Source: a bacterium
GTDB lineage: Bacteria > Chloroflexota > Anaerolineae > Epilineales > Epilineaceae
Assembly (NCBI GenBank): GCA_003576755.1
Contig: QEVT01000024.1
Span: 1-34,126, forward strand
Reading direction: 5' to 3'
Length of the DNA: 34,126 nt
This document shows, in pieces, positions 2,489-21,301 of the stretch (position 1 is its first letter; each line of letters opens with the position of its first letter). A program made the position numbers and the translations under genes. The notes beneath the pieces are model-generated. The model did no database searches. It was given only the letters and a program-made list of their open reading frames with translations, and was not told the origin of the DNA.

Positions 2489-2502
2489 AGTGCGATTGTA
2501 GA

Positions 2503-4569
2503 TCAGCCGAGCCGGGTGGGCAATCGATCGTTCTCGAGCAGCGGCGACGGCCGGCCCTTGTAGATGATCAGCAGCCGCTCCCGGGCCCGCGTGCAGGCGA
2601 CATAGAGCAGGTTCCGCTCCTGCTCGAGATAGGCCTCGCGGTCGACCTCGTCGGCCTGCTTGGTGCGCAGGAACGCCAGCGGCACGGTGCTCGCGTCGCA
2701 CGCCATCACGGCCACGGCCCGGAACTCCAGGCCCTTGGCCCGGTGCATCGTGCCCACGCCGATGCCCGCGCCATCGGCACCGCCTTCGTCGCTCAGGGCG
2801 CGGTCGGCCTGCCCGCTTTGCCGCACCGCGAGGCGTGCGCGCTCGCGCACCACGGCCTCGGTCCGCCCGAAGATGGCGATCTCCTCGGGGCGGAAGCCCT
2901 GGCTGACGAGGCGGCGGATCCAGTCGGCGACGGCGGCGATCTCGTCGTCGACGGTCGCCGTGCCGACGACCTCGGGCTCCGGGCCTGCCAAGAGCGAGAC
3001 CGTGGCCCGCGTGGCGGTGCTGCCGTCCGCCTCGACCACGGCCGATGGCATGAACCCGTCGGAGAAGCGGCGGATCTGCTCGGTGGTGCGGTAGTTGACC
3101 CGCAGCCGCTCCGAGCGCCCGCGCACGTCGATGCCCGCCGCCGACCATGTGAACGGGCGGCGGTAGATCCGCTGGCCGGCGTCGGCGCACAGGAACAGGT
3201 CATCGGCCCCGGCCGGCGCCAACATCCGGAGCAGCCGCAGCTCGGCCGGACCGAAGTCCTGGCACTCGTCGGCGACGACATGCCCGAACGGCGCCGTGTT
3301 CGTCGCCACGAGGTGATCGGCCAGCGCATGGCAGACCTGGCTCCACGTCAACTGGCCGAGGAGCGCGAGATCGCCCCACACCCGCTCGAACACCTTCCAG
3401 GCCGCCTGCCGCTGCCGGGCGCCCAAGGGCGTGCCGCGCCCGACCCGCGGGTGGGCGCGGTATGCCTCCCACGTGCGCAGGCCCCACGGGTCGACGAGGG
3501 CGTCCCACTCGGCACGCAGGAACACGGGATCGAGGTCGGTGGGTACGGCCGCGGCCGCTTCGTCGATCAGGCGCGCTACGGTGGTGGTGGTGGCCGGCAC
3601 GAAGTCACCGCCCGTCCTCGCGGTCCAGAGATCGACCGCCAGCTTGTGGATGTGGACGATCTCGAGGCGCGCGCGGTGCGGGTCGCCCGGGGCGACGAGG
3701 AGGTCCATCTTGGCGAGCAATCGCGCCGACAGGGTTTTCGAGAACGTTGTCAACAGAACGCGGGCATCGGGGCGCGCGCGGAGCAGCCGCGCCGCCCGGT
3801 GGAGCGCCACCACGGTCTTGCCGGTGCCCGCGCCGCCCGTCACCAACAGCGGGCCGCGGGCTTTCGCCTCGACGACCGACGCCTGTAGCGGGTGCAGGAA
3901 GACCACCCACCGCTCCCACGGCGCTTCCAGGGCGAGCCGGAGCTGCTCTTCGCTCTCGACCACCAGGAACCGGCGGCGTGCGTCGGGGTGCTGGAGGGGG
4001 CTTGCGGTGCTGAGCCCGACGGGCACGGGCACGGGCTGCCCGCAAGCCAGCTCCAGCAGCCGCTCGGCGGCCTCCTGGGGCAGCCGAGCCAGAAGGTCGT
4101 CGATCCCGCTCTCGCCGACATGCCGCACGGCCTGCAGCCATGCCTCGGGGACGCCCAACGCCAGCAGGTAGTCGGGATCGAAGCGCGCAAAGACGGCGGG
4201 CTCCTCGTCGCGGGCGATCCGGTGCACCACCTCCTCGACTCGCTCGGTCACCTCGACCACCTGCACGGCGCGCGTGCGCGGGTTGACCTCGAAGCGGCGC
4301 GCCTCGGCCCAGCGGTAGGCGGCGTCGTGGTGGTCGACGTAGCAGAGGGTGAACGCGTCGGACGACTGGTGGATGATCAACCGCAGGTCGCGGTTGACGC
4401 GGTAGGACCAGAAGCCGGGGTCGCGCGCCGACTCCAGGCGGTGGAAGTTGCCGCCCGGCTGGACGGGATGGACCTGGAAATCGAACACCGTCTGCTTGAC
4501 CAGGGCGCGCTCGTCGTTCTGCAGGCGCTCCAGGGACCGGGTGAAGGTATCCGCGATCACGGTTTGCAT
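2503..4569 (-). CDS. UvrD/Rep-type superfamily 1 helicase with RelE/ParE-like N-terminal domain
   Basis: The protein has 688 residues. Residues 1 to about 92 look like a RelE/ParE toxin fold, with a basic helical start (FTRSLERL), then a strand-rich segment containing SYRVNRDLRLII (55-66) and YVDHHDAAYRWA (77-88). The remainder is a superfamily 1 helicase: Walker A GGAGTGKT at 245-252, DECQD at 434-438, the GQRIYRR motif near 465-471, NYRTTEQIR at 492-500, GTMHRAKGLEF at 606-616 and YVACTRARERL at 656-666. All ATPase motifs appear intact. By family knowledge it would translocate on single-stranded DNA and unwind duplexes. The toxin-like domain may bind nucleic acid or ribosomes, which is unproven. 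Its ATG lies three bases after the stop of the YprA-like helicase (TGA-GCC-ATG), so the two are almost certainly translationally coupled. Similar fused architectures occur widely among bacterial helicases, so the fusion itself is real and not an assembly artefact. Confidence 0.92.
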   Translation of the reverse strand: MQTVIADTFTRSLERLQNDERALVKQTVFDFQVHPVQPGGNFHRLESARDPGFWSYRVNRDLRLIIHQSSDAFTLCYVDHHDAAYRWAEARRFEVNPRTRAVQVVEVTERVEEVVHRIARDEEPAVFARFDPDYLLALGVPEAWLQAVRHVGESGIDDLLARLPQEAAERLLELACGQPVPVPVGLSTASPLQHPDARRRFLVVESEEQLRLALEAPWERWVVFLHPLQASVVEAKARGPLLVTGGAGTGKTVVALHRAARLLRARPDARVLLTTFSKTLSARLLAKMDLLVAPGDPHRARLEIVHIHKLAVDLWTARTGGDFVPATTTTVARLIDEAAAAVPTDLDPVFLRAEWDALVDPWGLRTWEAYRAHPRVGRGTPLGARQRQAAWKVFERVWGDLALLGQLTWSQVCHALADHLVATNTAPFGHVVADECQDFGPAELRLLRMLAPAGADDLFLCADAGQRIYRRPFTWSAAGIDVRGRSERLRVNYRTTEQIRRFSDGFMPSAVVEADGSTATRATVSLLAGPEPEVVGTATVDDEIAAVADWIRRLVSQGFRPEEIAIFGRTEAVVRERARLAVRQSGQADRALSDEGGADGAGIGVGTMHRAKGLEFRAVAVMACDASTVPLAFLRTKQADEVDREAYLEQERNLLYVACTRARERLLIIYKGRPSPLLENDRLPTRLG

Positions 4570-4572
4570 GGC

Positions 4573-7500
4573 TCAGCCTTCAAGCATTGCGCGCAGGCGC
4601 CGCGCCACGTCGTCGGCGGGTGCGTCGGGTACGGAGACGACGACTCGGGTGCTGGCGTCGCCGACCGGTCGATCGTGGAGCAACACCGCTCCGGCGTCGG
4701 TCGGCCACGCCATCGTGGCGACCTCGCCCGTCGTGAAGCCGCGGACCGCCACGTCGAAGTCGATCTCGGGCGGCGGGAGGCCGCGGTGTCGCAAGCCCTC
4801 CGCCAACGGGCGCCAGCGGGCGTCGAGCAGGGCGAGGGCCTCGGACCATGGATCGCCAGCGGGCGGGTCATCGCCGCCGGTCCCCGCGACTTCGGGCGGC
4901 TGGAACCACGACGGGTCGGCAGCGAGCTGCTCGGCGTGGCCGTTGCCCAGCATCAACCAGCGGGCGAGCCGCTTCAGCTTGGCCGCCATCTCGGCGCGGT
5001 CGAAGAGGTCGCTGGCGGCGATGACCAAGACGCGGTAGTCCATGGCCTTCAGCCGATCGCGGAGCACGCGGTCGCGCTCCGCGGTCGCGGGGTTGCCGTG
5101 CAGGTGCCGGCTGAGGCCGTCGAGGTAGATGCAGATGCCGGGCTCGTCGTCCTCGCCGGGGTAGAAGCCGTCCGGCTCGGTCCAGCCGAAGCCGGAGCCG
5201 AGGTCGATGCGATGGTGCCAGATCGGCGCCGGGAAGCCGGCCTTCGCCAGATCGTCGCGGAGCGCCGCCTCGGCCCGGTTGACCGGGAGGCCGGCATGGT
5301 CGGCCGGTGGCGAGGGCAGTCGCGGCGGGACGAGGTGCTCGAACGCGAGCTCCGGTCCCCATGCCGCGAACCGCTCCGCCGCGACGGTGCGGTCGAGATG
5401 CCGATGGAAGAAGCCGTTCTCGAAGCTGAGGAGGCAGTCGACACACGCCCGCTCGCAGGCGGACGGGCAGCTCGCCACGACGTCGCGCGCGGCGGCGAGG
5501 ACTTCCGGGAACCGGCCGACGAGCTGGTCGAGCAAGCCCGAGCCGCCGGGCATGGGATCGTAGAGCACGGCCTCGACGGCGTCCTGGCCGGCGAGGCCGA
5601 TGACGAGCACCTCGAGGTCGTCGCGCTCCATCTCCAGCACGCGGGACGCGCCGATGCGCAGCGCCTCGAGGACGGAGTACGCCTGGGTGCGGTCGGCGAC
5701 GTCCGGGAGCACCATGGCGTCGGCGGCGATGTCGGCGTAGAAGCCGGTGGGCTGGACGGGCTGGCCGCAGCGCTCGAGATGCTTCTGGGCGAAGTGCTCG
5801 CGCTCCTTGGCCGAGGACAGCGGCGACGCGCAGTAGCCGCAGACCAGGCACAGCGGGTAGCCCGGCACGGCATGGGCCAGCGCCGGACCGACGTTGACCA
5901 GCCGGAACCGCGCGCCGCGCAGGTGCTGGACCGCGACCTCGCCCCAGCGGTGCGCGGCTCCGCCGCCGTGCTGCTCGCGGCGCAGGCCGTACACCGCCAC
6001 GGGCAGTTGGAAGCGGAAGTCCTCGTTGTCGCTGATCTGGGAGCGGTGCTGAAGGTCGACGTCGCAGATCGGCACGGCGCGCAGCTCATGCGCGGCCAGC
6101 GGCGCGACGCCGCCGGCGGGCGCCTGCCCCACTTCCGTGACGGCCTCGTGCGCGGGGTCGACGGCGAAGCAAGCCTGGGCTCGTGCGCCCGACGCAGCGT
6201 CGACGACCTCGAGCTGGTAGTTGCCGGCGACAAACCGATGCCCGTTGGCGTAGAGCAGGTTGCCGGGGACGAGCTCGCGCAGGGCCAGCGTAGGCGGGCG
6301 CGACAGGACGAAGGCGTCGCCCAGCGGCGGGCGCAGGTCGGCCAGGGCGCGGATGGCGCCGGTCTCGAGGCCATAGCCGGGCAGGAACCCTTCGGCGGCC
6401 AGGAGGCCGTAGGTGTAGGTGTCGTCGTCGGGTTCGGCGGCCGCCCGACGGCGCTGACGGTCGGTGCCCTTGAGGCGCCGGACCAGGCGTTCGCAGCGGT
6501 CGAAGTGGGCCTTCTCGTCAGGGTCCAAGGCCCCCTTGCGACGGCGGACCTCGTCGAGGCGCTGCATCTGGTCGCGGGCCCAGTCGAGGCGCCGGCGCAG
6601 GCGCCCCAGCACGGCGCCGAGGTCGTCGGCCATGCCGTCGATCAGCGCGCCGAGGCGCTGGGGGCCGACCCCTTCGGCCTCGGCCGCTGGCCACCCCTGG
6701 CGGAACGCGGCGGTGACGCTGTCCAGCAGCGCGACGCGGTGGGATTGGATGAGGTCTCGCAGCGGCGCGAGGTCGGGAAGAGCGGGCAGCACCGCGCCGC
6801 TCTCGTCGAACAGGTACCCGCGCACCCAGGCCGGGAAGGCCCGCTCGAGGACGGCGAGAGTGGGCGACGGCGGCCCTTCGCGGCGGGCGGCCTGGTGCAG
6901 GCCGGTCAGCACGGCGGCGTGCACGTGGCGGGCCACCATGAGGTCGTTGCGCAGGTTGAAGCGCGGCGGCTCGACGTGGCCGCCGAGCAGCTTGAGGGGG
7001 TCGGCGAAGTACGCGCGGTCGTGGCTGACGGGCCGCGCGTAGGTGAGGTTCACGGCCATGCGCATGCGCCGGCCGGCGCGACCGACGCGCTGCCAGTAGT
7101 TGGCGGCTTGCGGCGGCACGTTGCGCATCAGCACGGCGTCGAGGTCGCCGATGTCGACGCCGAGCTCGAGGGTCGGCGTGCAGACCAAGGTGTTCACCGC
7201 GTCGCCGTGGCCCTTGAAAGCGCGCTCGATGGTCTCGCGGACGGCGTGCGGCACCTGCGCCGAGTGCTCGTGCGGGCGGAGCATGCCGGTGTCGTCGCGC
7301 AAGAGGAGGAGGTCGTAGTTGTCGGGGTCTTCGAGTTGGTGGACCAGGCGGCCGTCGCAGCGCCAGGCGGTGCACCGCTGCCGCGGCGCCCCGCGGGGCG
7401 TCGCGCGGCGGCAGCGGTCGCAGCGCCACTGGCCCTCGTGGGCGGCGAGCACGAGGTGGCCGGCGTCCAGCTGGTAGGCGCCGGTGCAGTTCGGCAGCGG

Positions 7501-10326
7501 CTTGGGCGTGGCGCCGCTGCCCTTCAGCGTGACGGGGGTCAGGATGCCGAGGTCGGCGGTCAGGACGCGCCACAGCTCGGTCAGGCAGTCGTCGACGCGC
7601 TCGGGCGGGATGCCCCAGCGCGCGGCGTGCTGGCGGGCGGTGGTCTCGCCCTTGGTGCTGAGCCAGTGGTCGAGCCGGGTGCGGTCGTCGGCGGCGGCGC
7701 GGCGCAGCTTGACGCCCTTGGGGACGCCTTGCAGCACGGGGAAGTAGCCGCGCTGCACCTCGAAGTCGCCGTCGCGCCAGAAGCGGCCGAAGAGGTGGTC
7801 TTGGGGGTCGTGGACGATCGACTTGCGCCGGATCTGGTCGAGCAGGCCGGCCACGCCTTCGCGCAGCTCGGCAGGCGGCAGGCCGGCCAATGGCGCCCAG
7901 GTCTGGAAGAAGGGGAGGCCGGGCTCGAGGCCGTGGTACTGGACGATCATGCGGCCCCACGGCTCGAGGCCGATGCGCTGGCGGAAGGCGGTGGTCACCT
8001 CGCGGAGTACCTGGATGCGGAGGTAGCGGCGCCGCTCGTCTTCGTGCCGGTGCCCGGCCTTCTCGGGGAGATGGACGGCCCACACCTCGGGCACGAGGGT
8101 GCGCGAGAGCTCGTCGTCGGCCGCCAGGCGCTCGTCGAGCGTGGCGGCGAGGTCGCCGACGGACTGCGGGCGGTCGCGCAGCGCCTGGTCCATCAGGGCG
8201 CGCAAGCGGTAGCGGCGGGCATGGTCGCGCATCCAGCCGGCCTGGAAGGCGGCGTCCTGGCGGTTGTCGGCGAACACGAGCAGGCGGGGCCGCTCGGCGT
8301 GGCGCAGCATGTCCTGGGCGAGGATGTGGACGTCGGACACGGCCACGGCGCGCAGCTCGCGGGCGGGCTCGCGGTAGCGGGCGCCCATGGACCGGCCGCG
8401 GCTGCCGCACGAGAGGCAGGCGGTGAGGTAGCCGGGCGTGTCGGTCTTTTGCTGTGCGGCCAGGAGGGGCACGAGCGGGCCGGAGCGGGTGCAGGCGTCG
8501 CAGCGGGGACGGGGCAGGGGGTGCAGCGCGCCGCAGTGGCGGCAGAGGTGCACGGGCGCGCTGCGGCGCGGGATGTCGGGCTCGTCGGGGGCATCGGGGT
8601 CGTCGCCGGGATCGGCGGCGGCGCGATCGTCGGCCAGGCCGGCGAAGCGGTCGAAGAGGACGAGCCGCGAGCCGCCGTTCAGCGCGTCGAGGGCGGGCCA
8701 GTACCAGCGGTCGTCGACGGCGACGCCGCCGCCAGGGGTGTCGCCGTCGAAGGTGAAGTCCTGCACGGTGTGCACGAAGTAGTGCTGGCCGCAGGTGGTG
8801 CACGTGGTCAAGGGCAGACGGGCGAGCGGGACGTCGGTGCGGGCGGCGGCCTCGTCTTCGGCGGACAGCCACAGGCGCGGCTCGGCGGCGCCTGCGGGGA
8901 AGGTGACGATGGCGCCGCCGAGGCCGCGGGTGAAGGCATGCACGATAGGCCGCAAGAGCGGCCGGCCGGCGTTGCGGGCGGCGGCGCCGAGCACGAGCCA
9001 CGTTAGCAGCTCGGCCTCGGCCACGGGGCGCCCGACGCGGCGTGACAGGTCGTCGAGGGTGCTGTCGAGGGGTCGAGGCTCGGCCAGGGTTTCGGTGAGC
9101 TGGTAGACGAGGTCGTTGGCGGCCATGCGTCGATACAGGTCGTGGCGCCAGTCGTCCCAGAGGGGCTCGCCGGTCATGGCCTGCCACGCGGCTTGGATGG
9201 CGGCGGGGTCGTCGGCGTCGACGGCGGCGAGCACGGCCTGCAGGTGCACGGTGGGGTCGCCGGGGGGCGCGGGGCTGGGGGCACGGACGCGGGACCAGTC
9301 GTCTTCGGCGTGGGACTCGCCGACGACGTGCACGGCGGCGGGATCGACGCCGAAGAAGCGGGCGGCGAAGGCGCGGCCGGGTGCGTCGCCGCCGTCGGGG
9401 TCGACGAGGGTCGCGGAGGTGGCGACGCAGACGGTCTCGTCGGCGGTGCGGCCGCAAAACGAGCGCAGGCGGCGGATGAGGCAGGCGGTCTCGGCGCCGG
9501 CGGCGCCGCTGAAGGTGTGGGCTTCGTCGAAGACGAGGAAGTCGAGGCGGGCGTCGTCGAACAGGTCGACGTCGGCCTGGCGGGTGAGGAGGAGCTCGAG
9601 CTGCTTGACGTTGGTCAGGAGGATGCGGGGCTGCTGGCCGCTGGTGCGCATGGCTTCGCGGGAGCAGCGTTCTTCGGGCGGGTTGACGGCGGTGGTCTGG
9701 AAGGTGGCCTGGGCGCGGGCGAGGGCGGCGGCGTAGTCCTGCCGGGAGCTGCCGGCATCGAGGCGCTGGCTGGCGACGTCGGTTTCGGCGCGCGGCGTGC
9801 TGCCGACGTACAGCCCGAAGGTGACGCCGCTGCCGGCCAGGAGGGCGCGCAGGCGGCCGATCTGGTCTTCGGCGAGGGCGTTCATGGGGTAGACGAGGAC
9901 GGCGGTGATGCCGGCGGGTGCTCCCTGGTCGCGGAGGTTCAGGCAGTGGCTGATGATGGGGTACAGGAAGCACTCGGTCTTGCCGGAGCCGGTGCCGGTG
10001 GAGACGAGGGTGGTCTGGCCGGCGGCGATGGCGCGGATGGCCTCTTCCTGGTGGCCGTAGAGGCGGTCGTGGGGGTGCAGGCTGGCCAGGAGGGGGTGGA
10101 GGAGGCCTTCGTCGACGAGCTGGCGCACGGCGGCGCCGGGCCGAAAGGCGCGCGACAGGCTGATGTAGGGGCCCCTCAGGAGGGGGCTCTTGCGGGTGGC
10201 GTCGATGGACAGGAGCTGGCGCATCTGGCGGCTCAGGCGCTGATCGGCCAGCGGGTAGGCGGTGAGCTGGTAGCGGAGGAAGCCGCTGATGACCTTTTCG
10301 GTGTATGCGACGGGGTTGATGGCCAT
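4573..10326 (-). CDS. Giant YprA/DrmAB-like DEAD/DEAH helicase with DUF1998 region and possible C-terminal nuclease fold
   Basis: This is a 1917-residue superfamily 2 helicase. Walker A is STGTGSGKTE (K116), followed by VYPMNALAEDQ (145-155), DEAH (267-270) and motif VI RVGRAGRR (1080-1087). Several CxxC pairs in the middle (roughly residues 500-660 and near 970-1000) suggest zinc ribbons. The Cys cluster C1620, C1624, C1628, C1631 matches the DUF1998/MrfA-type C-terminal region. Near the end, EPD (D1719), IYLDG (D1736), a following His and an RDRVLRDRL helix resemble the Vsr/DUF559 endonuclease fold. The ATG has GGAG six bases upstream. The gene is coupled to the UvrD-like gene downstream. 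In DISARM, helicase and DUF1998 functions are split between DrmA and DrmB; here one protein holds both, as in YprA/MrfA and Druantia DruE. The role as motor of an anti-phage complex is inferred from context. Confidence 0.92.
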   Translation of the reverse strand: MAINPVAYTEKVISGFLRYQLTAYPLADQRLSRQMRQLLSIDATRKSPLLRGPYISLSRAFRPGAAVRQLVDEGLLHPLLASLHPHDRLYGHQEEAIRAIAAGQTTLVSTGTGSGKTECFLYPIISHCLNLRDQGAPAGITAVLVYPMNALAEDQIGRLRALLAGSGVTFGLYVGSTPRAETDVASQRLDAGSSRQDYAAALARAQATFQTTAVNPPEERCSREAMRTSGQQPRILLTNVKQLELLLTRQADVDLFDDARLDFLVFDEAHTFSGAAGAETACLIRRLRSFCGRTADETVCVATSATLVDPDGGDAPGRAFAARFFGVDPAAVHVVGESHAEDDWSRVRAPSPAPPGDPTVHLQAVLAAVDADDPAAIQAAWQAMTGEPLWDDWRHDLYRRMAANDLVYQLTETLAEPRPLDSTLDDLSRRVGRPVAEAELLTWLVLGAAARNAGRPLLRPIVHAFTRGLGGAIVTFPAGAAEPRLWLSAEDEAAARTDVPLARLPLTTCTTCGQHYFVHTVQDFTFDGDTPGGGVAVDDRWYWPALDALNGGSRLVLFDRFAGLADDRAAADPGDDPDAPDEPDIPRRSAPVHLCRHCGALHPLPRPRCDACTRSGPLVPLLAAQQKTDTPGYLTACLSCGSRGRSMGARYREPARELRAVAVSDVHILAQDMLRHAERPRLLVFADNRQDAAFQAGWMRDHARRYRLRALMDQALRDRPQSVGDLAATLDERLAADDELSRTLVPEVWAVHLPEKAGHRHEDERRRYLRIQVLREVTTAFRQRIGLEPWGRMIVQYHGLEPGLPFFQTWAPLAGLPPAELREGVAGLLDQIRRKSIVHDPQDHLFGRFWRDGDFEVQRGYFPVLQGVPKGVKLRRAAADDRTRLDHWLSTKGETTARQHAARWGIPPERVDDCLTELWRVLTADLGILTPVTLKGSGATPKPLPNCTGAYQLDAGHLVLAAHEGQWRCDRCRRATPRGAPRQRCTAWRCDGRLVHQLEDPDNYDLLLLRDDTGMLRPHEHSAQVPHAVRETIERAFKGHGDAVNTLVCTPTLELGVDIGDLDAVLMRNVPPQAANYWQRVGRAGRRMRMAVNLTYARPVSHDRAYFADPLKLLGGHVEPPRFNLRNDLMVARHVHAAVLTGLHQAARREGPPSPTLAVLERAFPAWVRGYLFDESGAVLPALPDLAPLRDLIQSHRVALLDSVTAAFRQGWPAAEAEGVGPQRLGALIDGMADDLGAVLGRLRRRLDWARDQMQRLDEVRRRKGALDPDEKAHFDRCERLVRRLKGTDRQRRRAAAEPDDDTYTYGLLAAEGFLPGYGLETGAIRALADLRPPLGDAFVLSRPPTLALRELVPGNLLYANGHRFVAGNYQLEVVDAASGARAQACFAVDPAHEAVTEVGQAPAGGVAPLAAHELRAVPICDVDLQHRSQISDNEDFRFQLPVAVYGLRREQHGGGAAHRWGEVAVQHLRGARFRLVNVGPALAHAVPGYPLCLVCGYCASPLSSAKEREHFAQKHLERCGQPVQPTGFYADIAADAMVLPDVADRTQAYSVLEALRIGASRVLEMERDDLEVLVIGLAGQDAVEAVLYDPMPGGSGLLDQLVGRFPEVLAAARDVVASCPSACERACVDCLLSFENGFFHRHLDRTVAAERFAAWGPELAFEHLVPPRLPSPPADHAGLPVNRAEAALRDDLAKAGFPAPIWHHRIDLGSGFGWTEPDGFYPGEDDEPGICIYLDGLSRHLHGNPATAERDRVLRDRLKAMDYRVLVIAASDLFDRAEMAAKLKRLARWLMLGNGHAEQLAADPSWFQPPEVAGTGGDDPPAGDPWSEALALLDARWRPLAEGLRHRGLPPPEIDFDVAVRGFTTGEVATMAWPTDAGAVLLHDRPVGDASTRVVVSVPDAPADDVARRLRAMLEG

Positions 10327-10421: not shown

Positions 10422-10682
10422 CTACCGTGGTTCAGCTCGCCTCGTCAATTCGTCGGCGCCTCCACGATCCTCAGCATCGAGCATGTCTGCCCACTCGGCC
10501 AACCCCTCTGCCGCCAGGGTGAGGTCATCCTCATGCCCCATCTCTGAAAGGCGTTTGACATTCCATCGGTCTGGATCGGGAACGCGAAGGGCAATCAGCC
10601 GGACACGTTCGCCTGGCCGTAGTGCCAGCGGCGATGTGGGCTTGAGCAAGCCATCCTCATAACGGGCCTCGACGGGTTGCAT
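10422..10682 (-). CDS. DUF104/AF2212-type small antitoxin, without a visible toxin partner
   Basis: This 86-residue protein starts MQPVEARYEDGLLKP and continues to LRPGERVRL, the beta-rich pattern of the DUF104 (AF2212-like) antitoxin family, followed by an acidic helical tail. The ATG at 10682 was chosen because the family begins right there; in-frame Met codons slightly upstream lack a better ribosome site. Members normally sit just before a PIN-domain RNase toxin on the same strand. Here the next minus-strand gene, 95 bases downstream, is the giant YprA-like helicase, and no PIN gene is present. It is divergent from the MNT gene, with a 106-base gap that should hold both promoters, although none is clear. 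It may be a leftover antitoxin or may regulate the helicase gene; neither role is shown. Confidence 0.75.
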   Translation of the reverse strand: MQPVEARYEDGLLKPTSPLALRPGERVRLIALRVPDPDRWNVKRLSEMGHEDDLTLAAEGLAEWADMLDAEDRGGADELTRRAEPR

Positions 10683-10777
10683 GTGTGGCATCATAGCATC
10701 GGGTCGATGCCTTCGCAACCAGAGCGATCATGGGAATCCGTTAGACTGCCCCGAACGCGCGTGCTTTGCTGACAATC

Positions 10778-10783: not shown

Positions 10784-10788
10784 TCACG

Positions 10789-11256
10789 ATGACGATTCCG
10801 GTTGACATACATCGGATTCGACTGCAAACCGTGCCGCGAATTGTGATCCTGGACGTCGCGCGGCGGATCGGCGCGACGTTCCGGCCGCTGCGGATCGTCC
10901 TGTTCGGCTCTTATGCCTATGGCGATCCAACGCCGGACAGCGACGTGGACATGCTCGTCATCATGGACACCGACCTGAGCGAGACCGATCAAGCCGTGGA
11001 GATCGCTCGGGTCATTGAGCCCCGTTTCGGGCTGGACCTTCTCGTCCGAACGCCCCGGAGCCTCGACCGCCGCCTGGCGCTCGGCGATCCGTTCCTGCGC
11101 GAGGTCGTCGAACGTGGCGAAGTGATCTATGAACCGGACTCACTAACGCTCAGGCGGGCCCATTCGGCGATGGAATGTCCCAAACTTGCCGGGCCAAGCT
11201 CGCGAGCATGGACTGACGCCGCTCGATCGCGGCAGAGTCCCATCGATCAAACGTGA
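10789..11256 (+). CDS. MNT-type minimal nucleotidyltransferase, HEPN partner missing
   Basis: This 155-residue protein shows the MNT signature: GSYAYG at 40-45, SDVD at 51-54 and a third acidic residue in GLDLLV (D83). By family knowledge, MNT antitoxins in MNT-HEPN pairs transfer AMP to a Tyr of the HEPN RNase toxin and neutralise it. The start is fixed by GAGGAG at five-base spacing. The normal fold ends near VIYEPDS (residues 112-118). The remaining 37 or so residues read through the 3' end of the convergent DUF262 gene (107-base overlap) and look like out-of-frame filler rich in Ser, Arg and Pro. No HEPN gene follows, so the pair seems to have been truncated. It is the only plus-strand gene inside the defence island. 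Polymerase reading the island end to end would produce antisense RNA across it. Confidence 0.85.
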   Translation: MTIPVDIHRIRLQTVPRIVILDVARRIGATFRPLRIVLFGSYAYGDPTPDSDVDMLVIMDTDLSETDQAVEIARVIEPRFGLDLLVRTPRSLDRRLALGDPFLREVVERGEVIYEPDSLTLRRAHSAMECPKLAGPSSRAWTDAARSRQSPIDQT

Positions 11257-12937
11257 TGAGCCCGGCGGACTTGATTGCCTTGTCGATTTTTGTGTCACCA
11301 ATTGTCATGATCGCACCAATGGTCTTGGACAACAGGAACTTGGACTTCGAGTACACCAGGAACTTGTCTGAAAACGGCTTATTGCTAACGGAGCGATTCA
11401 AGCTTTCTTCCAAGATGGTCAAGTTTCCGAGGCGACCGACATAGGTCGAGTACTCTTCTGGTTTGTCGAATAGGATATCGGGACCGTCAGTTTGCGGTAG
11501 GATGTGCTCGAGGTCGCGCTCGTTCAAGAACAGACTGAGATTCGCCTCGGACTCTCCATATGCCCGCTCTTCGACATACTGCGCGAGCTTGCCGAGAATA
11601 TAGCGCATGCGGTACCGTGGGACGCTCGCTTCTGTCAAGCTGTGAAGGGCGAGATCGAATCGATCCGACAATTGCTGCTTTGCGGGATCGAAGTAGCGTT
11701 GGACGTATTGGTCAACGTCGGGTTCGTTTCGGCACTGCGTCAGGTCCGAGGCCCAGGCAGCAAACTTACGCTCGAACTCTTTGGTCGGCTCACGTGTGAT
11801 GATGTAGGCAAAGAACAGGTTCTCTATTTCACAGCACAACTTGGTGAAGGCGCCTGTCGGCAAGTGCATCGCCGACAGGAGTAGGATATAGTGCTGGCGG
11901 GCAGCGTAGCTCAGCGCCGTGATGTTGGAGAGGTAGCGGTTGGGGGAGCCATCTGGATTCTTACCAACTGCGAAGTTGGCGTAAGCTGTCGCCGCATCGC
12001 ACAATTGGTCGACGAACTTGAGCGGATCAGCAGAAAACCCCACGGCTTTCTCGTGATCTGTAAACCAGCGATAGATTCCTTCCTCACGAAGGCGATCGAC
12101 GTCATACTTGGCGAAGATAAAGTACCGAAGGAATCGTAGAGGCTTCTCTTGTGCTCGGTGAAGTGTATCGACCATGCTCTTCCATTTGTCCTTCAATTTA
12201 TCGTAGTCGGCCTGTGATGCATGGATGAACATCAAGTTCTTCAGAAGATCCATCGGACTGAGACCTACGCCTCTGTCGTTGACGGTCTCGAAGACCTTAA
12301 GCGCGTGTGCCTCGCTCTGAGTCTGGATACGTACGAGTTTGACATGGTTGATGATGTAGGCGAAGAAGCGTTGGACTTCGCTCGGCTCCTCCTTGAACTC
12401 CTGGGCCAGGAACTGCCTGATGTTGGTGTAAGCATTGAGCAGTCGCTGTGCGGAGCGCGTGTTGGGCAACGACTCCGGATCAATGGCCTCTCCAGCCCCG
12501 ATTCGGTCCAAGACATCTGCGCTATCGGAGTACTGCAGCTTGATTCGGTAGCGTCTTACGGCGTGTCCCAAGTCATCCATGCTCTCAAAGCTGATTCGCG
12601 ATGTAATGATCTGGGGCGGCATGACTCCCAGCTCCATAAGACGGTCACGAACAGCGCACGTGATGAGGAAGAACGTCGTCATGCGTTGCTGGCCGTCGAT
12701 GAGGTTGAGCATGCCATCGATACCGGGGCACACGACGATACTGCCCACAAAGTACTCTGCCGCCGGTGCTTTGAGATCGGGATACTCGGCGAGGATATCT
12801 TGTAGCAGTTGTTCGACTTCCCGTTCAGTCCACACATATTCGCGCTGGTAAGTGGGTACGGCGTAAAAGTCCTGCATGATCTTGTCGACAGAGAGATCGT
12901 GCGACTCGATCGACTGCAGTGGAACGTTCTGGCTCAT
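11150..12937 (-). CDS. DUF262-DUF1524 protein (GmrSD-like restriction family)
   Basis: The protein has 595 residues. The N-terminal DUF262 domain carries the ParB/sulfiredoxin-like motifs VPTYQREYVW (27-36), YFVGSIV (62-68) and IDGQQRMTTF (80-89). The C-terminal DUF1524 HNH-type domain shows LEHILPQ (476-482) and GRLGNLTIL (501-509). By family knowledge, GmrSD-type enzymes are NTP-dependent nucleases that cut modified DNA, and DUF262 proteins occur in many defence islands. The ATG is preceded by a moderate AAGGGA six bases upstream. It sits 50 bases after the methyltransferase gene on the same strand, so it is probably co-transcribed with it. GC is strikingly low for the window: the line at 12061-12120 counts 28 of 60, against 47 of 60 at 6601-6660. 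This suggests recent acquisition. Its last 107 bases overlap the convergent MNT gene. Confidence 0.92.
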   Translation of the reverse strand: MSQNVPLQSIESHDLSVDKIMQDFYAVPTYQREYVWTEREVEQLLQDILAEYPDLKAPAAEYFVGSIVVCPGIDGMLNLIDGQQRMTTFFLITCAVRDRLMELGVMPPQIITSRISFESMDDLGHAVRRYRIKLQYSDSADVLDRIGAGEAIDPESLPNTRSAQRLLNAYTNIRQFLAQEFKEEPSEVQRFFAYIINHVKLVRIQTQSEAHALKVFETVNDRGVGLSPMDLLKNLMFIHASQADYDKLKDKWKSMVDTLHRAQEKPLRFLRYFIFAKYDVDRLREEGIYRWFTDHEKAVGFSADPLKFVDQLCDAATAYANFAVGKNPDGSPNRYLSNITALSYAARQHYILLLSAMHLPTGAFTKLCCEIENLFFAYIITREPTKEFERKFAAWASDLTQCRNEPDVDQYVQRYFDPAKQQLSDRFDLALHSLTEASVPRYRMRYILGKLAQYVEERAYGESEANLSLFLNERDLEHILPQTDGPDILFDKPEEYSTYVGRLGNLTILEESLNRSVSNKPFSDKFLVYSKSKFLLSKTIGAIMTIGDTKIDKAIKSAGLITFDRWDSAAIERRQSMLASLARQVWDIPSPNGPA

Positions 12938-12987: not shown

Positions 12988-15900
12988 TCAATCCTCCCAC
13001 AAGCCGCGCTGCTTCCCCGCCTCGTACTGCGCGCGTTCCTCCGCCACGCGCCGCTCCTCGCGCTGCTCGCCGGCGAGCTCGCGCTGTAGGCGGCGGAACT
13101 CGGTTTCGCCGAGGATGTTCCTGGCGTGGCGTTCGCACTCGGCCCAGCTTTCCTCGGCGGTCTGTTCGAGCTGCCACGGCAGGAAGCGCTCGCCCAGCCG
13201 GGCGCGGACGGGCTGGGCGACCCCTGCGCGGTCGTCGTGGCCGAGGCCGAGGTCGGCGAGGCGCAGCGTTTCGGGGAGCATCCACCCGTCGCCGTCGTGC
13301 TGGCGGCAGAAAGCGTCGATGCCGCCATGGCGATCGCCGGCGCGGGCGATGGCGCCCTTGAGGTCGTGGAACGCGACGAGGCTCAGCACGGTGTGCCGCA
13401 ACTCGGGGTCTTGGGTCTTGTCGACGCGCCAGAAGCCCTTGGGGTCGAGGGCCCGGGTGAAAGCGCTCTGCCGCATCGCCGCGGCGGGATGATCGCAGTC
13501 GCGCAGGATGTACGCGAAGTCGTCCCAGTCGAGGCCGTACAGCTCGGCGACGACGGCATCCAGCATGGCGCGCAGGCGAAGGCGCTCATGGGGGGTGATG
13601 GCCCAGAGGCGGCGCCAGGAACGCTTACCGTCGAAACGTTGCCATAGGGACTGTAACCGAAGCCACATGGGCGCGAACTGATCGTTGGGAGTAGCAAGCT
13701 GGGCAACGGCCGCCAACCAAATGTCTCTGATTCCAACGAACACAGAGCGGGGAGGCAGTGCGGTCTCCACCATTACGAACTCACTCATGTTGAGACCACC
13801 AAGTCGACCTCGGGCCTGAAAGTCGAACACGATAGAGTTGAGTACGCCCACCAAGCTCAGACAGTCCGAACTGCTGTGTGTACGAGAGCGAAAGAAGAAC
13901 ACGCTGTCCCCTGCTGGCAGCGAATCCAAGTACGTGGCTATCGTTGTTCTCGAATTCGTCGCGGAACTGATCCGCATGTAGGCAAGTTTGGGGTGGAGGT
14001 ACGACTTTTTCGATCCGCGGGCACTCGCCAACCCCATCAAATACTGCGGCTCAACCACCTTCGCTCCCCAAGGAATCTCCCGCCATACAGCCGTTCTCCC
14101 CTTGCCGCTAACCCACCCTTTATCACTGAAGTCGAACTGCCCGATCATCCGCCCTTCGTACAACGGCAACGCCACATCCCCCCGCGGCCCCACCCACCGC
14201 CCATACTCGTCCGGCCGATAGCCCTTGGCTTCCCACTGGGGGCGCGGGGGGAAGAGGTGGGAGTCGTTCGTCATATGGAACTCGGTTGCGTATCGGATTC
14301 CCCACCCCTCCGGTCCGTCGTCGCCCAAGAGGACCGTGCCCGTGTAGATCTTCTCGAGGATCGCGATGTCGCGCTCGCCCCGGATTTCCAGGATCGCCTG
14401 CGTGCGCGGGCTGAAACGGTCCACCTGCGCCCGGCCGTACGGGATCACGTGCCGCTCGGCGTTCTCCCAGTCCGCCAGATCGTGCCGCATGAACGCCGCC
14501 GTCACCGCGCGCGTGGCGCCCCCTTTCTGCACGATGATCGGGCAGAACTTGAAGCTGCGGTGGATTCCGAAGATGCCATCGCGGTTCTCGAACCCGAACA
14601 ACCACTGCCACCGCGAGCGATCCAAGAGCAGCACCCGCAGCGCCGTCGCACCCTTGTCCGTGTAGAGTCCCGACGGCACCACCAGGCCCAGACGCCCGTC
14701 ATCCCGGAGCAGCGCGCGCCCTTGCTCGATGAACATCTTGTACGTGTTGATGTCCGCCGCTCCCTGGTGGCGGAAAGGGTGCTCCGCGTCGGCGTACGAC
14801 ACCCATCCCGCGCGCCGGTGCCGCCATACCGCGTGGACGCCTTCGCCGCCCTTGCCCAGGTTGAACCGCCCTTCCCCGTCCGCGCCATCCCCAAACGGCC
14901 GCCCCGCGTGTTGGCTCCAGCTCGACAGCGCCTTGAACCGCGCGTTATAGGCCAGCCAGGCCCGCTCGTCCGCCGCGCTGGCCGCGAAGATCTCGCGCTG
15001 CCGCCGCAGCGCCTCCTGCTTGCCGTAGCTCCGGTAGAGCGGGTCGAGGTTCGAGAAGAACTCCTTGCTGTTCGGCTTCTGGATCTCCCACGGCGGGTTC
15101 CCGATCACCGCATCGAAACCGCTGCCCTCCGCCGCGAAGACGTCCGGGAACTCCAGCTCCCAGTGGAAGAACCCGTGCCGCCGCGCCAGCGCCGCCACCC
15201 CCGCCGCCGTCGCCGCGCTCGGCCGCTCGAACGACTCCGGCGACGGCGCCGACGCCAGGTCGTCCGCCGGCCAGAACCAGCACGCGCACCACGTGTCGAA
15301 GGCCGCCTTCAGCGCCAGGTAGCCCCGCCCCTCCACCAGCGCCCGGTAGGCATCCGCCTGCCGCTCCGGGTCCGCCAGCCCCACCCCGTGCACACCCTCC
15401 AGCCCCGCCCGCAGCGCCGCGTGCAGCGCCTCCGGCGCAGCGCCGTCGACCACGTCCAGGAAGTGCCGCTGCCCCGTGATCCACCGCGGCAGCTCCTCCT
15501 TCACTCGCTCGTTGCGGAAGGCCTTGATCGCCCGCGTCCACACCTCCTTCCCGAAGTGCACCCCCGCGTGCCGCTTGTCGCCCCCCTCGCGCTCCCACGC
15601 CAGCGCCGGGTAGTCCCGGAACCGGTCGAACCAACAGCCCACCAGCGCGTTGCCCGCCTTCAGCTTGTGGTCCAAGAAGCCGAACGGCAGCGAGCGGTCC
15701 ATCGTCTCCACCCAAAGCGCCAGCCGCGCCAGCTCCACCGCCAGCGGGTCGACGTCTACACCGTAGATGCACCGCTCCACCACATAGCGCTTCAGCCGCG
15801 CCCGGAGCGTCGACTCCCCCTCCGGCCCGTCCAACGCCGGCATCCGCTCCTCCCCCAGCCCCCCCGTCTCCGGCAAGCCCAGCGGCATCGTGCGCCCCCG

Positions 15901-18033
15901 CCCATCCGGCAGCGGCGCCAGCCGATCGTGCGCGTGCAGGCTCTCGAAGAGCGCGTCCGTCAAGAACCGCAAGCCCGCCACCAGGAACGAGCCCGAGCCC
16001 ATCGCCGGGTCGCACACCCGCAAGCCCAGGATCGCCTCCGGGGCCCGGACCCGCCACGCATCCGCCGGCGCCCGCTCGTCCGGCAGCCCGTCCGCCCCCA
16101 GCGGCGCCTCGTACGCCAGCGGCCGCAGCGTGCGCTGCGCCGTCGGCACCGCCAGCCCCGGCGGCGTGTAGAACGTCCCCGCCCCCTTCCGCGTACCCCC
16201 CCAGCGCACCAGGAACCACTCGCCCGGCAACACCAGCCGCGCGATCAACCCCTCCGCCGCTCGGTCCAGCGCCGCTTCGTACGCCCCCAGCGCCGCCTTC
16301 GACGCCCCCCGCGGGCGCCGCATCCCCAACGCCGCCGCCCGCCGGCCCCACGCCAGCGCCCGTGTCCGCGCCCAGTGCCACGCGTCGTCGCCGGCACCGC
16401 CCACACCCGCCGCGTCGCCGCCCACACCGCCGCCCTCGGCCACCGACCCGACAGCCCCGATCTCCCCCGTGACGGCCCGACCGTCCACCGACTCCCAATC
16501 TCCGCCGGCAACCGACTCCCCGTCGCCGTCTCCCACCACCCCTTCGTCGTCCTCGCCCGCCGACTCCCCGTCGCCGCCATCCTCCGACTCCCCACCGTCC
16601 GCTGCGTCCCCCTCGCCGTCCAGCGACACCGCCGCTTGCGTCACCTTCAACTTCTTCAACAAGTCGCGCAGCGCGCTGTCCGGGAGCCCCTCCAGCCGCG
16701 ACAGCGGCAGCGCCGGCTCGTCGCCCAGCGCCAGGAACACCATCGGGTCGCCCGCCGGCGCCCGGCGCAGCTCGAAGTCCAAGAGCCCCTCGTAGAGGAT
16801 GCCGATGTACTCCGTCGAGAGGTCCGCGAAGTCCACCGGCACGTCCACTACCGTGCTGCCGCGGCCCTGCCGCAGCCGCGTCGGGCAGCGCGTGATGAGG
16901 TCCAGGATCGCCCACGTCGTCCCGTCGTGCGGCCCCGCGTCCGGCAGCTCGAACACCGCCAGCGCCCGCCGCACCGGGTCCGCCGACGCCGCGTCGCCCG
17001 GCTCGAACAGCCCGCCCCCGTAGCGCGGGACCGGCAGCTCCGGGTGGTGACAGCCCCCGTGCACCAGCCGCCACAGCGCCAGGATGCGCGGCCACGCCCC
17101 CCGCCGGTGCCGCAGCCGGTCCACCCCGCCCGCCGCCGCAAGCTGTTCCCGCAGGCCGCCCAGCCCATACCCCGCGTGGTACAGCGCGTTGTCGCGTGGC
17201 AAGAGGTCGCGCGCCTCCGCGAAGAGCACCACCACCAGCCGCATCACCGCCCGGCACGCCGCCACGTACACCGCCTCGCCCGGCACCGAGTCCTCCAGCG
17301 CTTCCAGCCGCGGCCCGTAAGCCTGGATGAGCAGCTCCACCGCACGACGCACCCGCTCCCCCAGCGCATGCGACAGCTCCGCCTGCCCCCGACGCGAGTC
17401 CAGCACCGCTGCCAGCAGCACCCCCGGCCCGCCGTCCGGCGCCGGCGCCAGCACCTCCGGCGCCAGGAGCGCCCGCAGCGCCGCCACCTGCGGCCCCGGC
17501 CGCCCGTGCTCCAGCCACAGCGCCGAGTCCCACTCGGCCCACGCGTGATGGTCCAGCCCCGCGTACACCAGCCGCCATTGCCGCCCGTTCGTCATGAGCG
17601 CGAGGTGCAGCCGCGCCCGCCGCAGCCACTCCACCACCCGCGCGAAGCCGCGGCGGCCCCGGCCGAGCCCGAGCCGCGGCGCGTCGTCCAGGAACACCGG
17701 CAGCGGCGCCGGGCCGTCCGCCTGCCACACCCCCCACGGCCGGGTGGCCGCACCCGTCAGGTCGCGGTGCGTCCACGTCGTGTCCAGCGCCGGCCCCAGC
17801 CGCCAGCCCTCCAGCGCGTCCAGCCCGCACACCCGTTCCAGCACCGTGCTCATCAGCGCCGCGCGGGCGTCCGTGTCGCCAGCCTCCGCCCGCACCAGGT
17901 CGCGGCGCAACCGGTCCGCCAGCCACGGCGCCAGCGCATGCGGCTCGGCCGGCAGGCCGCGCAAGCGTGCCGGCGCGATCAGGAGCCCGCCGTGCCGCAG
18001 GCTCGACCACCAGGCGTAGGGCTCGCCCGCCAC
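12988..18033 (-). CDS. drmMI: DrmMI/PglX-like Eco57I-type N6-adenine DNA methyltransferase
   Basis: The protein has about 1681 residues. Motif I CDPAMGSGSF is near 674-683, the YGVDVDPLAVELARLALW segment is typical of the Eco57I/PglX group, and the catalytic NPPW is at 979-982. The N-terminal 450 or so residues are a large helical region. The region after about 1300 looks like a target-recognition part, ending with LNSIVFDFQARG. By family knowledge it methylates adenine N6 and marks self DNA in DISARM or BREX systems. The GTG at 18033 was chosen because it follows the drmD stop by one base (TGA-C-GTG) and its first residues fit the family better than the frame extension into drmD. A Gly/Asp/Glu-rich low-complexity stretch (about residues 465-548) precedes the catalytic core. 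Codons at about 13630-14110 have lower GC than the rest. It is longer than usual for the family. Confidence 0.88.
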   Translation of the reverse strand: MAGEPYAWWSSLRHGGLLIAPARLRGLPAEPHALAPWLADRLRRDLVRAEAGDTDARAALMSTVLERVCGLDALEGWRLGPALDTTWTHRDLTGAATRPWGVWQADGPAPLPVFLDDAPRLGLGRGRRGFARVVEWLRRARLHLALMTNGRQWRLVYAGLDHHAWAEWDSALWLEHGRPGPQVAALRALLAPEVLAPAPDGGPGVLLAAVLDSRRGQAELSHALGERVRRAVELLIQAYGPRLEALEDSVPGEAVYVAACRAVMRLVVVLFAEARDLLPRDNALYHAGYGLGGLREQLAAAGGVDRLRHRRGAWPRILALWRLVHGGCHHPELPVPRYGGGLFEPGDAASADPVRRALAVFELPDAGPHDGTTWAILDLITRCPTRLRQGRGSTVVDVPVDFADLSTEYIGILYEGLLDFELRRAPAGDPMVFLALGDEPALPLSRLEGLPDSALRDLLKKLKVTQAAVSLDGEGDAADGGESEDGGDGESAGEDDEGVVGDGDGESVAGGDWESVDGRAVTGEIGAVGSVAEGGGVGGDAAGVGGAGDDAWHWARTRALAWGRRAAALGMRRPRGASKAALGAYEAALDRAAEGLIARLVLPGEWFLVRWGGTRKGAGTFYTPPGLAVPTAQRTLRPLAYEAPLGADGLPDERAPADAWRVRAPEAILGLRVCDPAMGSGSFLVAGLRFLTDALFESLHAHDRLAPLPDGRGRTMPLGLPETGGLGEERMPALDGPEGESTLRARLKRYVVERCIYGVDVDPLAVELARLALWVETMDRSLPFGFLDHKLKAGNALVGCWFDRFRDYPALAWEREGGDKRHAGVHFGKEVWTRAIKAFRNERVKEELPRWITGQRHFLDVVDGAAPEALHAALRAGLEGVHGVGLADPERQADAYRALVEGRGYLALKAAFDTWCACWFWPADDLASAPSPESFERPSAATAAGVAALARRHGFFHWELEFPDVFAAEGSGFDAVIGNPPWEIQKPNSKEFFSNLDPLYRSYGKQEALRRQREIFAASAADERAWLAYNARFKALSSWSQHAGRPFGDGADGEGRFNLGKGGEGVHAVWRHRRAGWVSYADAEHPFRHQGAADINTYKMFIEQGRALLRDDGRLGLVVPSGLYTDKGATALRVLLLDRSRWQWLFGFENRDGIFGIHRSFKFCPIIVQKGGATRAVTAAFMRHDLADWENAERHVIPYGRAQVDRFSPRTQAILEIRGERDIAILEKIYTGTVLLGDDGPEGWGIRYATEFHMTNDSHLFPPRPQWEAKGYRPDEYGRWVGPRGDVALPLYEGRMIGQFDFSDKGWVSGKGRTAVWREIPWGAKVVEPQYLMGLASARGSKKSYLHPKLAYMRISSATNSRTTIATYLDSLPAGDSVFFFRSRTHSSSDCLSLVGVLNSIVFDFQARGRLGGLNMSEFVMVETALPPRSVFVGIRDIWLAAVAQLATPNDQFAPMWLRLQSLWQRFDGKRSWRRLWAITPHERLRLRAMLDAVVAELYGLDWDDFAYILRDCDHPAAAMRQSAFTRALDPKGFWRVDKTQDPELRHTVLSLVAFHDLKGAIARAGDRHGGIDAFCRQHDGDGWMLPETLRLADLGLGHDDRAGVAQPVRARLGERFLPWQLEQTAEESWAECERHARNILGETEFRRLQRELAGEQREERRVAEERAQYEAGKQRGLWED

Positions 18034-18034
18034 G

Positions 18035-21000: not shown

Positions 21001-21301
21001 GGAACGGCACGAGCGCCGACCACCGCGTGGCGCGCACCAAGGCGTCGAAGACGTCGGGCGCCATGGGCGCGGTGGCCGTCACGTCGGGCAGCGCGGTCGG
21101 CTCGAGCAGCGCCGCGCCGGCCTCGCGCTCCCAGATCAGCGTCTCTTCCGCCGGCCCGTCGGGGTCGCTGAACGCCACCGTGGCCAGGTGAAGCTGGTCG
21201 CCGGTCGTTCCGCCGACGGCGTCGACCGCGTTGACGACCCCGCGGCGGTTGCGCACGGTGGCCATCATGCCGACCCGCGGAGGAAGCGCGGCAGGGCTCA
21301 T
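18035..21301 (-). CDS. drmD: DrmD-like SNF2-family helicase
   Basis: This 1088-residue SNF2-type helicase has ADDVGLGKT (146-154, Lys153), CPASLRAQW (177-185), DEAH (262-265), LTATPHSG and, in the second RecA domain, ATDAASEGLNLQ and RLDRHGQ. A charged coiled-coil region (about 970-1050) precedes the C-terminus. In class 1 DISARM, the SNF2 protein DrmD is encoded just ahead of the adenine methylase DrmMI; that order and a one-base junction are seen here. By family knowledge it is an ATP-driven duplex-DNA translocase. The ATG at 21301 is the first good start. No strong ribosome site is visible, and Met11/Met12 are alternatives. A promoter candidate lies about 140 bases upstream, making this the first gene of the island. 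Similar SNF2 proteins exist in other systems, so the DrmD name rests on the neighbour. Confidence 0.85.
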   Translation of the reverse strand: MSPAALPPRVGMMATVRNRRGVVNAVDAVGGTTGDQLHLATVAFSDPDGPAEETLIWEREAGAALLEPTALPDVTATAPMAPDVFDALVRATRWSALVPFLDPDGDGPLGPLPVAAPFHGAIQPEDYQLVPLLKALRMPRVALLLADDVGLGKTIQAGLILAELSLRRRLRRVLVLCPASLRAQWRQEMQDKFALRFETVDREATWRLRKQQGLDANPWRAYPRVIASFDYLKQPDVLSEFVAACQVPEGSPHLPWDMLVLDEAHNLAPVGYGEDSQGTRMLAELTPHFEHRIFLTATPHSGHTRSFTGLLELLDPVRFSRSSELPPAARERVAEAVVRRLKREINAQVSPPRFGSRELQAVRLSFSPEERRLAAAFQDFRKAVRRLLRTARRSEQLAGGFAVEVLGKRLLSCPVAFADSWWRFRAGHGAVDDVGDAEVRAAERAAREDTDDDLEVEGRLAHAARTVGAWLRPRAGELAGAIGAVETALADLDLGATDGGASPHDPRHDARVHQLLGLVETYLRGRGGWRSDERLVVFTEYKTTLDYLARRLAQRFGADGAVRTLFGGMGHDEREAIKAAFNDPDDAVRILVATDAASEGLNLQQTARLLLHFDVPWNPARLDQRNGRLDRHGQARDVKVFHFVSNDDADLDFLGYVVGKVEQIREDLGSMGEVFDQAFQRRFLDDEDPGVLRRAVDEAGERLRGQSEVPRDDAAAADSTGAAEAERQRALRMALDLNAGTFRATLDVAMGLRAGRPRLEAADGRGRCQLRHPLAPDWVDLIDASLRQPGPGGAPGALPALLFDPAGLVEPAPGSGRPVFRPRRDTALLHLAHPLVERMLAVFARERYPGVGTATRWTVRRGAVPAGADAMVVLTVEELAVNALRETFHHWVRTLRLPVRGGALLPEEPDAPSTGAAGDAVPTAAVPTARDIAAAAEVWDDVERAVRDVVKARRQVLTGELRAALSAAGQVERREAQARFQSRQGELSTLIEGQTVERLERELKEIERQRGQLPLWGEEAYLQELARSAQARAEEIERRKRQGAELRTQLERERERVLEHLLPRRHSLFGEAQVFPVAVEIRLPGSGG

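What the first reader, a model, noticed from the sequence alone, without database searches (positions are those of the whole stretch)
5040..5240. Possible Vsr/DUF559-like nuclease fold at the C-terminus of the YprA helicase
Residues about 1695-1765 read WTEPDGFY, then ICIYLDG, a His, RDRVLRDRL, and a final strand with YRVLVIAASDL. The order of acidic residue, strand with acidic residue, His, Arg-Asp helix and strand matches the very-short-patch/DUF559 endonuclease pattern. The usual Glu is Asp (D1736) and a clear catalytic Lys is missing, so it may be a divergent or inactive nuclease. A helicase-nuclease fusion could replace the DrmC PLD nuclease of DISARM.
Basis: partly seen in the sequence, partly recalled or inferred. 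Interest (0 to 1): 0.68.

Follow-up and report, generated by a model that had tools for sequence, protein, structure and literature searches.

The report
Vsr-type nuclease domain on defence helicase
The end of this large bacterial defence helicase is a DNA-cutting domain of the Vsr type with what looks like a complete active site, which fits a recently described anti-phage system (ARMADA) and is therefore real but not a new kind of thing.

Summary
Residues about 1680-1795 of the 1917-aa YprA-family helicase (window 4573-10326, minus) form a Vsr/EDxHD-type nuclease domain. A model of the region matches I-Bth0305I (Z 12.6), a DUF559 protein (9.7) and Vsr-DNA (9.6) best. A profile of the domain matches standalone Vsr proteins at 96.5% probability, against at most 0.42% in 20 shuffles. 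The suspicion of inactivity is not supported. D1736 is not a replaced Glu: it sits at the Asp/His-Gly position of Vsr and DUF559, and Vsr-type sites need no Lys. E1686, D1719, D1736, H1743 and D1752 are all present, and 47 of 65 fused homologues keep all five. The locus is not DISARM: BrxHII/DrmD-like helicase, PglX-like methylase, a GmrSD-like insert, the YprA helicase and a UvrD/GajB-like helicase follow the published ARMADA Type II order. That paper already states that its YprA protein ends in a predicted active Vsr nuclease (PMC12458937). So this is a new member of a known kind. Cleavage is untested here, and I found no test of it in print.

The parts
4573..10326 (-). YprA-family (ArmC-like) helicase, 1917 aa
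   Evidence: Open frame; DEAD, Helicase_C and MZB matches in Pfam; PADLOC best DruE
5431..5667 (-). MrfA Zn-binding (MZB/DUF1998) domain, aa 1554-1632
   Evidence: PF09369, 45 bits over cut-off 24.2
4942..5289 (-). Vsr/EDxHD-type nuclease domain, about aa 1680-1795
   Evidence: Structure match Z 12.6/9.7/9.6 to 3r3p/3hrl/1cw0; profile-profile 96.5% to Vsr with shuffled controls
5269..5271 (-). E1686, helix Glu (aligns with Glu of Vsr TKPE)
   Evidence: 60 of 65 homologous domains; alignment
5170..5172 (-). D1719, Asp of the PD motif
   Evidence: 63 of 65
5119..5121 (-). D1736, Asp of the DG motif (His/Asp in Vsr)
   Evidence: 61 of 65
5098..5100 (-). H1743, conserved His
   Evidence: 49 of 65 in the aligned column, two more shifted by one; constant in the closest relatives
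5071..5073 (-). D1752, Asp of the RD helix
   Evidence: 60 of 65
4576..4929 (-). C-terminal tail aa 1800-1917, unassigned
   Evidence: Low-confidence model; no profile match to Vsr
2503..4569 (-). UvrD/GajB-like helicase (ArmD-like) with weak RelE/HigB-like N-terminus
   Evidence: HigB-like E 0.0075, below cut-off; 33% to E. coli ArmD
12988..18141 (-). PglX/Eco57I-type DNA methyltransferase (ArmB-like)
   Evidence: 56% to the L036 neighbour, 23-30% in pieces to E. coli ArmB
18035..21301 (-). BrxHII/DrmD-like SNF2 helicase (ArmA-like)
   Evidence: PADLOC DrmD 6.8e-202; 29% to E. coli ArmA
11150..12934 (-). GmrSD-type (GmrSD_N + GmrSD_C) gene between the ArmB- and ArmC-like genes
   Evidence: Pfam PF03235 and PF07510 over cut-off

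Best explanation
The C-terminus of this ArmC-like YprA helicase is a Vsr-type (EDxHD) metal-dependent DNA nuclease fused to the helicase of an ARMADA Type II anti-phage locus. Shown here: fold, homology, a complete E-D-D-H-D residue set, and the gene neighbourhood. Inferred: the RecA core loads on and moves along single-stranded or unwound phage DNA in the manner of MrfA and DruE, the OB-CON-DUF1998 canopy feeds DNA to the C-terminal domain, and that domain nicks or cuts it with metal ions held by D1719 (with D1736 and D1752), helped by E1686 and H1743. Sparing of host DNA through ArmB methylation or ArmA/ArmB gating is also inferred.
For: Fold: best matches are I-Bth0305I (Z 12.6), DUF559 protein 3hrl (9.7) and Vsr-DNA 1cw0 (9.6). 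Homology: the 20-row profile finds 3hrl (E 2.8e-4) and 3r3p (E 3.3e-3) in PDB sequences; 96.5% profile-profile with Vsr, controls at most 0.42%. Residues: all five catalytic-type positions kept in this protein and in 47 of 65 homologous domains; four of the five are among the nine most conserved of 120 columns. Locus: ARMADA II gene order; the published class has a predicted active Vsr domain at this place.
Against: The model is modest (pLDDT 58, pTM 0.45), Foldseek alone gave no match at E up to 0.001, and no curated family model hits this sequence by itself. The PD motif reads PDG here, where 60 of 65 have Phe after the Asp. 18 of 65 relatives depart from the five-residue set, so the fold can persist without a full site. 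ARMADA mutants reported in section 6 of PMC12458937 do not include this domain.
Confidence: 0.72

Rival explanations
1. The domain keeps the Vsr fold but works as a DNA-binding or docking module and not as a nuclease, as predicted in print for the Vsr domains of Druantia I/II and concluded for the Vsr-like FASTKD4.
For: Ten of 65 related domains lack the His, and three lack most of the site; inactivated Vsr domains are described in sister systems; FASTKD4 has the fold without nuclease function (passages).
Against: All five residues are intact in this protein, and four of the five rank among the most conserved columns, which is not expected if catalysis had been lost in this branch.
Confidence: 0.2
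2. One reading: a DUF559/PD-(D/E)XK nuclease in which D1736 replaces the Glu, serving as the DrmC substitute of a DISARM system.
For: Superfamily is right; PADLOC labels two neighbours DrmD and DrmMI.
Against: Register: the DUF559 Glu falls on Y1734. In the own genome the MZB/DUF1998 model hits only two YprA-type proteins, so no separate DrmB is seen, and PLDc_2 hits only contig C68.
Confidence: 0.05
3. Chance resemblance of short motifs with no shared ancestry or fold.
For: No curated family model hits this sequence by itself.
Against: Structure and profile comparisons point to the same family, with shuffled controls far below.
Confidence: 0.02

Closest known systems
ArmC of ARMADA Type II (E. 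coli NCTC 12900 and ATCC 8739; Bell et al. 2025 preprint, PMC12458937)
   Same: YprA helicase with C-terminal Vsr-type domain; same neighbours in the same order; by eye the E. coli ArmC tail shows the same E, PD, LDG, His, ED order
   Different: Only 24-35% identical in pieces and weakly matched by the domain profile; a GmrSD-type gene lies between ArmB and ArmC here, not in E. coli
I-Bth0305I catalytic domain (EDxHD homing endonuclease, 3r3p)
   Same: Best structural match, Z 12.6 over 97 residues; profile match E 3.3e-3
   Different: Free-standing intron enzyme with its own DNA-binding part, not fused to a helicase (review passages)
Vsr mismatch endonuclease (1cw0, 1vsr; Pfam PF03852)
   Same: Fold (Z 9.6 and 8.5); positions of Glu, PD Asp, D/H-Gly, His and RD Asp
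   Different: No PF03852 match; lacks the GCFWHxH..C signature of the real Vsr proteins; fused to a helicase
DUF559 proteins (3hrl)
   Same: Fold (Z 9.7); profile-profile 97.7%
   Different: The Glu of ExDG is Y1734 here
DruE of Druantia III (9tu7 series)
   Same: Related YprA helicase core
   Different: DruE ends in two PLD domains (passages), not a Vsr-type domain

Membership tests
Vsr/EDxHD-type nuclease superfamily | Vsr-type fold | tested here: met
   Z 12.6, 9.6 and 8.5 to 3r3p, 1cw0 and 1vsr, on a model of modest confidence
Vsr/EDxHD-type nuclease superfamily | Sequence-profile homology | tested here: met
   96.5% against Vsr; 20 shuffles at most 0.42%; 3r3p E 3.3e-3
Vsr/EDxHD-type nuclease superfamily | E, D, D/H, H, D catalytic-type residues | tested here: met
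   E1686, D1719, D1736, H1743, D1752; which His corresponds to Vsr H69 is ambiguous because of a three-residue insert
Vsr/EDxHD-type nuclease superfamily | Metal-dependent DNA cleavage | not testable with these tools
   Needs an assay
Canonical Vsr family (PF03852) | Match to the family model | tested here: not met
   No PF03852 match in the protein or its C-terminal part at E up to 1
Canonical Vsr family (PF03852) | GCFWHxH...C segment | tested here: not met
   Here DGLSRHLHGNP; in the nine real Vsr proteins (V/A)(H/D)G(C/A)FWHxH
DUF559 (PF04480) | Match to the family model and Glu of ExDG | tested here: not met
   10 of 20 relatives match, this one does not; Y1734 at the Glu position
ARMADA Type II | Order BrxHII-like, PglX-like, YprA, GajB-like | tested here: met
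   with a GmrSD-type gene inserted
ARMADA Type II | RelE-like N-terminus on the GajB-like helicase | tested here: inconclusive
   HigB-like match E 0.0075, below Pfam's cut-off; N-terminus aligns with E. coli ArmD
ARMADA Type II | Placement in the Type II clade of the YprA tree | not tested
   No tree was built
DISARM | DrmA and DrmB as separate genes | tested here: not met
   Helicase and MZB are in one protein; only two MZB matches in the own genome, both in YprA-type frames; genome 82% complete
DISARM | PLD nuclease DrmC at the locus | tested here: not met
   No DrmC among the window ORFs scanned; PLDc_2 in the own genome only on contig C68
Druantia III | C-terminal PLD domains on DruE | tested here: not met
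   No PLD match in P0001; Vsr-type domain instead

The most novel reading that the evidence does not exclude
This lineage (the window protein, L036, and the frameshifted Synechocystis plasmid copy) is a separate branch of ARMADA in which the helicase carries a working Vsr-type nuclease with a characteristic DGLSxxxHGN loop; in the window a GmrSD-type nuclease gene has also been inserted inside the operon, so that one locus combines methylation-based self-marking, helicase-coupled cutting and possibly restriction of modified phage DNA.
Probability: 0.15. Interest if true: 0.45.

Novelty: new member of a known kind. Interest (0 to 1): 0.3.

Why it matters
It gives an independent, control-backed case that an ARMADA helicase ends in an intact Vsr-type active site, and it names five residues to mutate. 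In the section of the ARMADA paper that lists mutants (PMC12458937 section 6) the Vsr domain is not among those tested, so whether ARMADA cuts DNA, and with which domain, remains an open and directly testable question.

Tried and rejected
Rejected: DISARM membership; chance resemblance; the reading of D1736 as a replaced Glu. Left open: whether the tail aa 1800-1917 is the second, inactivated Vsr domain described for ARMADA II. hhalign of five aligned tails gave 0.15% against Vsr, 0.10% against DUF559 and only a spurious 11-residue overlap with the domain set, and the tail model is of low confidence.

Led nowhere: phmmer of the domain alone against PDB sequences (no match); a viral-contig scan (75 pattern matches, none a relative); tblastn in phages (two weak records); a paper search with Vsr residue names. 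The A4 profile on the six E. coli ATCC 8739 ARMADA/Druantia proteins gave a weak match to ArmC (E 2.1e-4 whole; 6.2e-4 for the PD to RD part) and none to DruE. Foldseek by itself was inconclusive: no match at E up to 0.001, and several of its top rows were other endonucleases. DdmD, Bax1, Hjc and others appear lower as common-fold matches.

Rows dropped: of the hits, named duplicates of one locus, L038 (its printed C-terminus is identical to L039's) and domain matches under 110 aa were left out before the 65-row count. The 20 rows of A4 were picked by hand and trimmed. Most of the 65 rows come from one phylum and are related, so counts are not independent events.

Full report
What is there. 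The frame window 4573-10326, minus strand, encodes a 1917-aa helicase with DEAD (aa 92-180), Helicase_C (aa 1021-1086) and MrfA Zn-binding/DUF1998 (aa 1554-1632) matches in Pfam. No Pfam, NCBIfam or PADLOC model matches the C-terminal part by itself, so the observation went beyond what standard annotation shows.

Homologues. A search with aa 1540-1800 in 301 genomes of the same phylum found a match in 86, many only in the Zn-binding part. A six-sequence alignment through the C-terminal domain matched 101 of 400 genomes. One genome-contig scan gave five named loci: a Bacillota-labelled MAG (58% in the best segment), a Ktedonobacterales MAG, and Meiothermus/Thermus. The Ktedonobacterales contig has the length and match place of G228:C64, listed as 'same phylum', so the window's genome is probably a Chloroflexota (inference; the placement of Ktedonobacterales is recalled).

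Fold. An AF2 model of aa 1640-1917 from five rows is modest overall (mean pLDDT 58.1, pTM 0.45); the blocks over aa 1680-1790 are mostly 71-90, with two dips to 54 and 57. Foldseek alone was not significant (3r3p had probability 0.99 but E 0.038). VIA-align 2 over Foldseek's 1000 top chains put the I-Bth0305I catalytic domain first (Z 12.6, 97 aligned, 2.4 A), then the DUF559 protein 3hrl (9.7), Vsr-DNA 1cw0 (9.6, 24% identity), a mitoribosomal chain (9.2) and 1vsr (8.5). A profile of 20 hand-picked domains (A4) found 3hrl (E 2.8e-4) and 3r3p (E 3.3e-3) among PDB sequences, with nothing else below E 0.9. Of those 20 members, 12 matched MTES_1575 and 10 DUF559 at E up to 1; this protein itself matched neither. 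Profile-profile comparison gave 96.5% with nine standalone Vsr proteins and 97.7% with nine DUF559-type ORFs; 20 column-shuffled versions gave 0.04-0.42% against Vsr.

Active site. Aligned with real Vsr proteins, E1686 meets the Glu of 'TKPE', D1719 the Asp of 'PD', D1736 the His/Asp of 'FV(H/D)G' and D1752 the Asp of 'RD'. H1743 or H1741 meets the conserved His; the loop here has three extra residues. In the relatives that share this loop (L036, the Synechocystis fragment L033, and L047) only H1743 is constant. Passages in PMC11879112 describe the D51-H69 pair of the Vsr site, and passages of a review say that the EDxHD family is named after its conserved catalytic residues and appears to use metal ions (PMC3943268). 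In a local alignment of 65 fused domains, E is kept in 60, D1719 in 63, D1736 in 61, H1743 in 49 and D1752 in 60; all five in 47. Of the other 18, one is a frameshifted fragment, two (L005, L032) have a His shifted by one column, ten lack the His (one of them also the Glu), one lacks the Glu only, one lacks D1752 only, and three lack most of the site; the last groups look inactivated. Four of the five residues are among the nine most conserved of 120 columns; His ranks 18th. The absence of Lys is normal for this type.

Context. On the minus strand the order is DrmD/BrxHII-like helicase (18035-21301), PglX/Eco57I-type methylase (12988-18141), a GmrSD-type gene (11150-12934), the YprA helicase, and a UvrD/GajB-like helicase (2503-4569) with a weak RelE/HigB match near its start. 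This is the order given for ARMADA Type II (PMC12458937 section 5), apart from the GmrSD-type gene. In E. coli ATCC 8739 all four genes have homologues of the window's (ArmD 33%, ArmC 24-35% in pieces, ArmB 23-30% in pieces, ArmA 29%). The E. coli ArmC C-terminus shows the same residue order by eye, with a weak profile match. In the L036 relative the methylase and helicase frames are adjacent, and ArmD was not found by tblastn. DISARM's separate DrmB and PLD DrmC were not found.

What is known. I read the abstract, sections 5-10 and the figure legends of PMC12458937. It states that ARMADA I and II YprA proteins end in a predicted active Vsr-type nuclease, that Type II often carries further inactivated EEP and Vsr domains, and that Druantia I/II carry inactivated Vsr domains. 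Its section 6 reports that each of the four genes is needed and lists Walker, NPPW and SAM-motif mutants; no Vsr mutant is named there (supplements not seen). Paper searches showed no report of cleavage by this domain. Passages of PMC13192584 describe DruE, a related helicase with PLD domains, nicking plasmid DNA. Passages of PMC13316683, PMC11090510 and PMC12904381 were also seen. One search shows that the 9tu7 series is DruE; the two PDB sequences that matched E. coli ArmC at E up to 1e-20 matched it only in part, so neither appears to be ArmC.

Mechanism. Shown: homology, fold, intact residue set, operon. Inferred: helicase-coupled, metal-dependent nicking or cutting of phage DNA by the C-terminal domain, with ArmB methylation or ArmA/ArmB gating sparing the host. 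I give about 0.72 to a working Vsr-type nuclease within an ARMADA II locus and about 0.2 to a fold kept for binding or docking.

Verdict. A correct observation of something real that belongs to a class published in 2025, so a new member of a known kind. Its main value is the exact residue assignment and the point that the domain looks active rather than dead.

Noticed in passing
window 11150-12934, minus: A GmrSD-type gene (GmrSD_N + GmrSD_C in Pfam; PADLOC Orf5/HEC-06) sits between the ArmB- and ArmC-like genes; it is not between them in E. coli ATCC 8739, and in L036 the two frames are adjacent.
   Followed up: partly
window 10422-10718 minus and 10681-11256 plus: An AF2212-like (antitoxin-type) frame and, on the opposite strand, a nucleotidyltransferase (PADLOC PDC-S09) just upstream of the helicase gene.
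   Followed up: no
window 1247-2509, minus: A DUF4143/AAA_14 ATPase (PADLOC PDC-S01, 7.8e-114) lies just downstream of the ArmD-like gene.
   Followed up: no
L102 (own genome, contig C437): A second YprA-type helicase with MZB; the frame holds the start of a similar domain (PPDFVYA) and the contig ends soon after.
   Followed up: partly
L112 5500-6500 (G321): A 161-aa frame carrying only the end of the Zn-binding region and the closest-type domain (DGLSKGIHGN); no further ArmC match in 8.5 kb around it, so perhaps a remnant.
   Followed up: partly
L033 (Synechocystis sp. B12 plasmid): A 42-54% identical ArmC and an ArmB that are broken by frameshifts and, in ArmB, by an IS701 transposase.
   Followed up: partly
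L078, L079, L081, L082, L085, L091, L096-L101: Fused Vsr-type domains that lost the His or most of the active site, suggesting repeated inactivation within the family.
   Followed up: no
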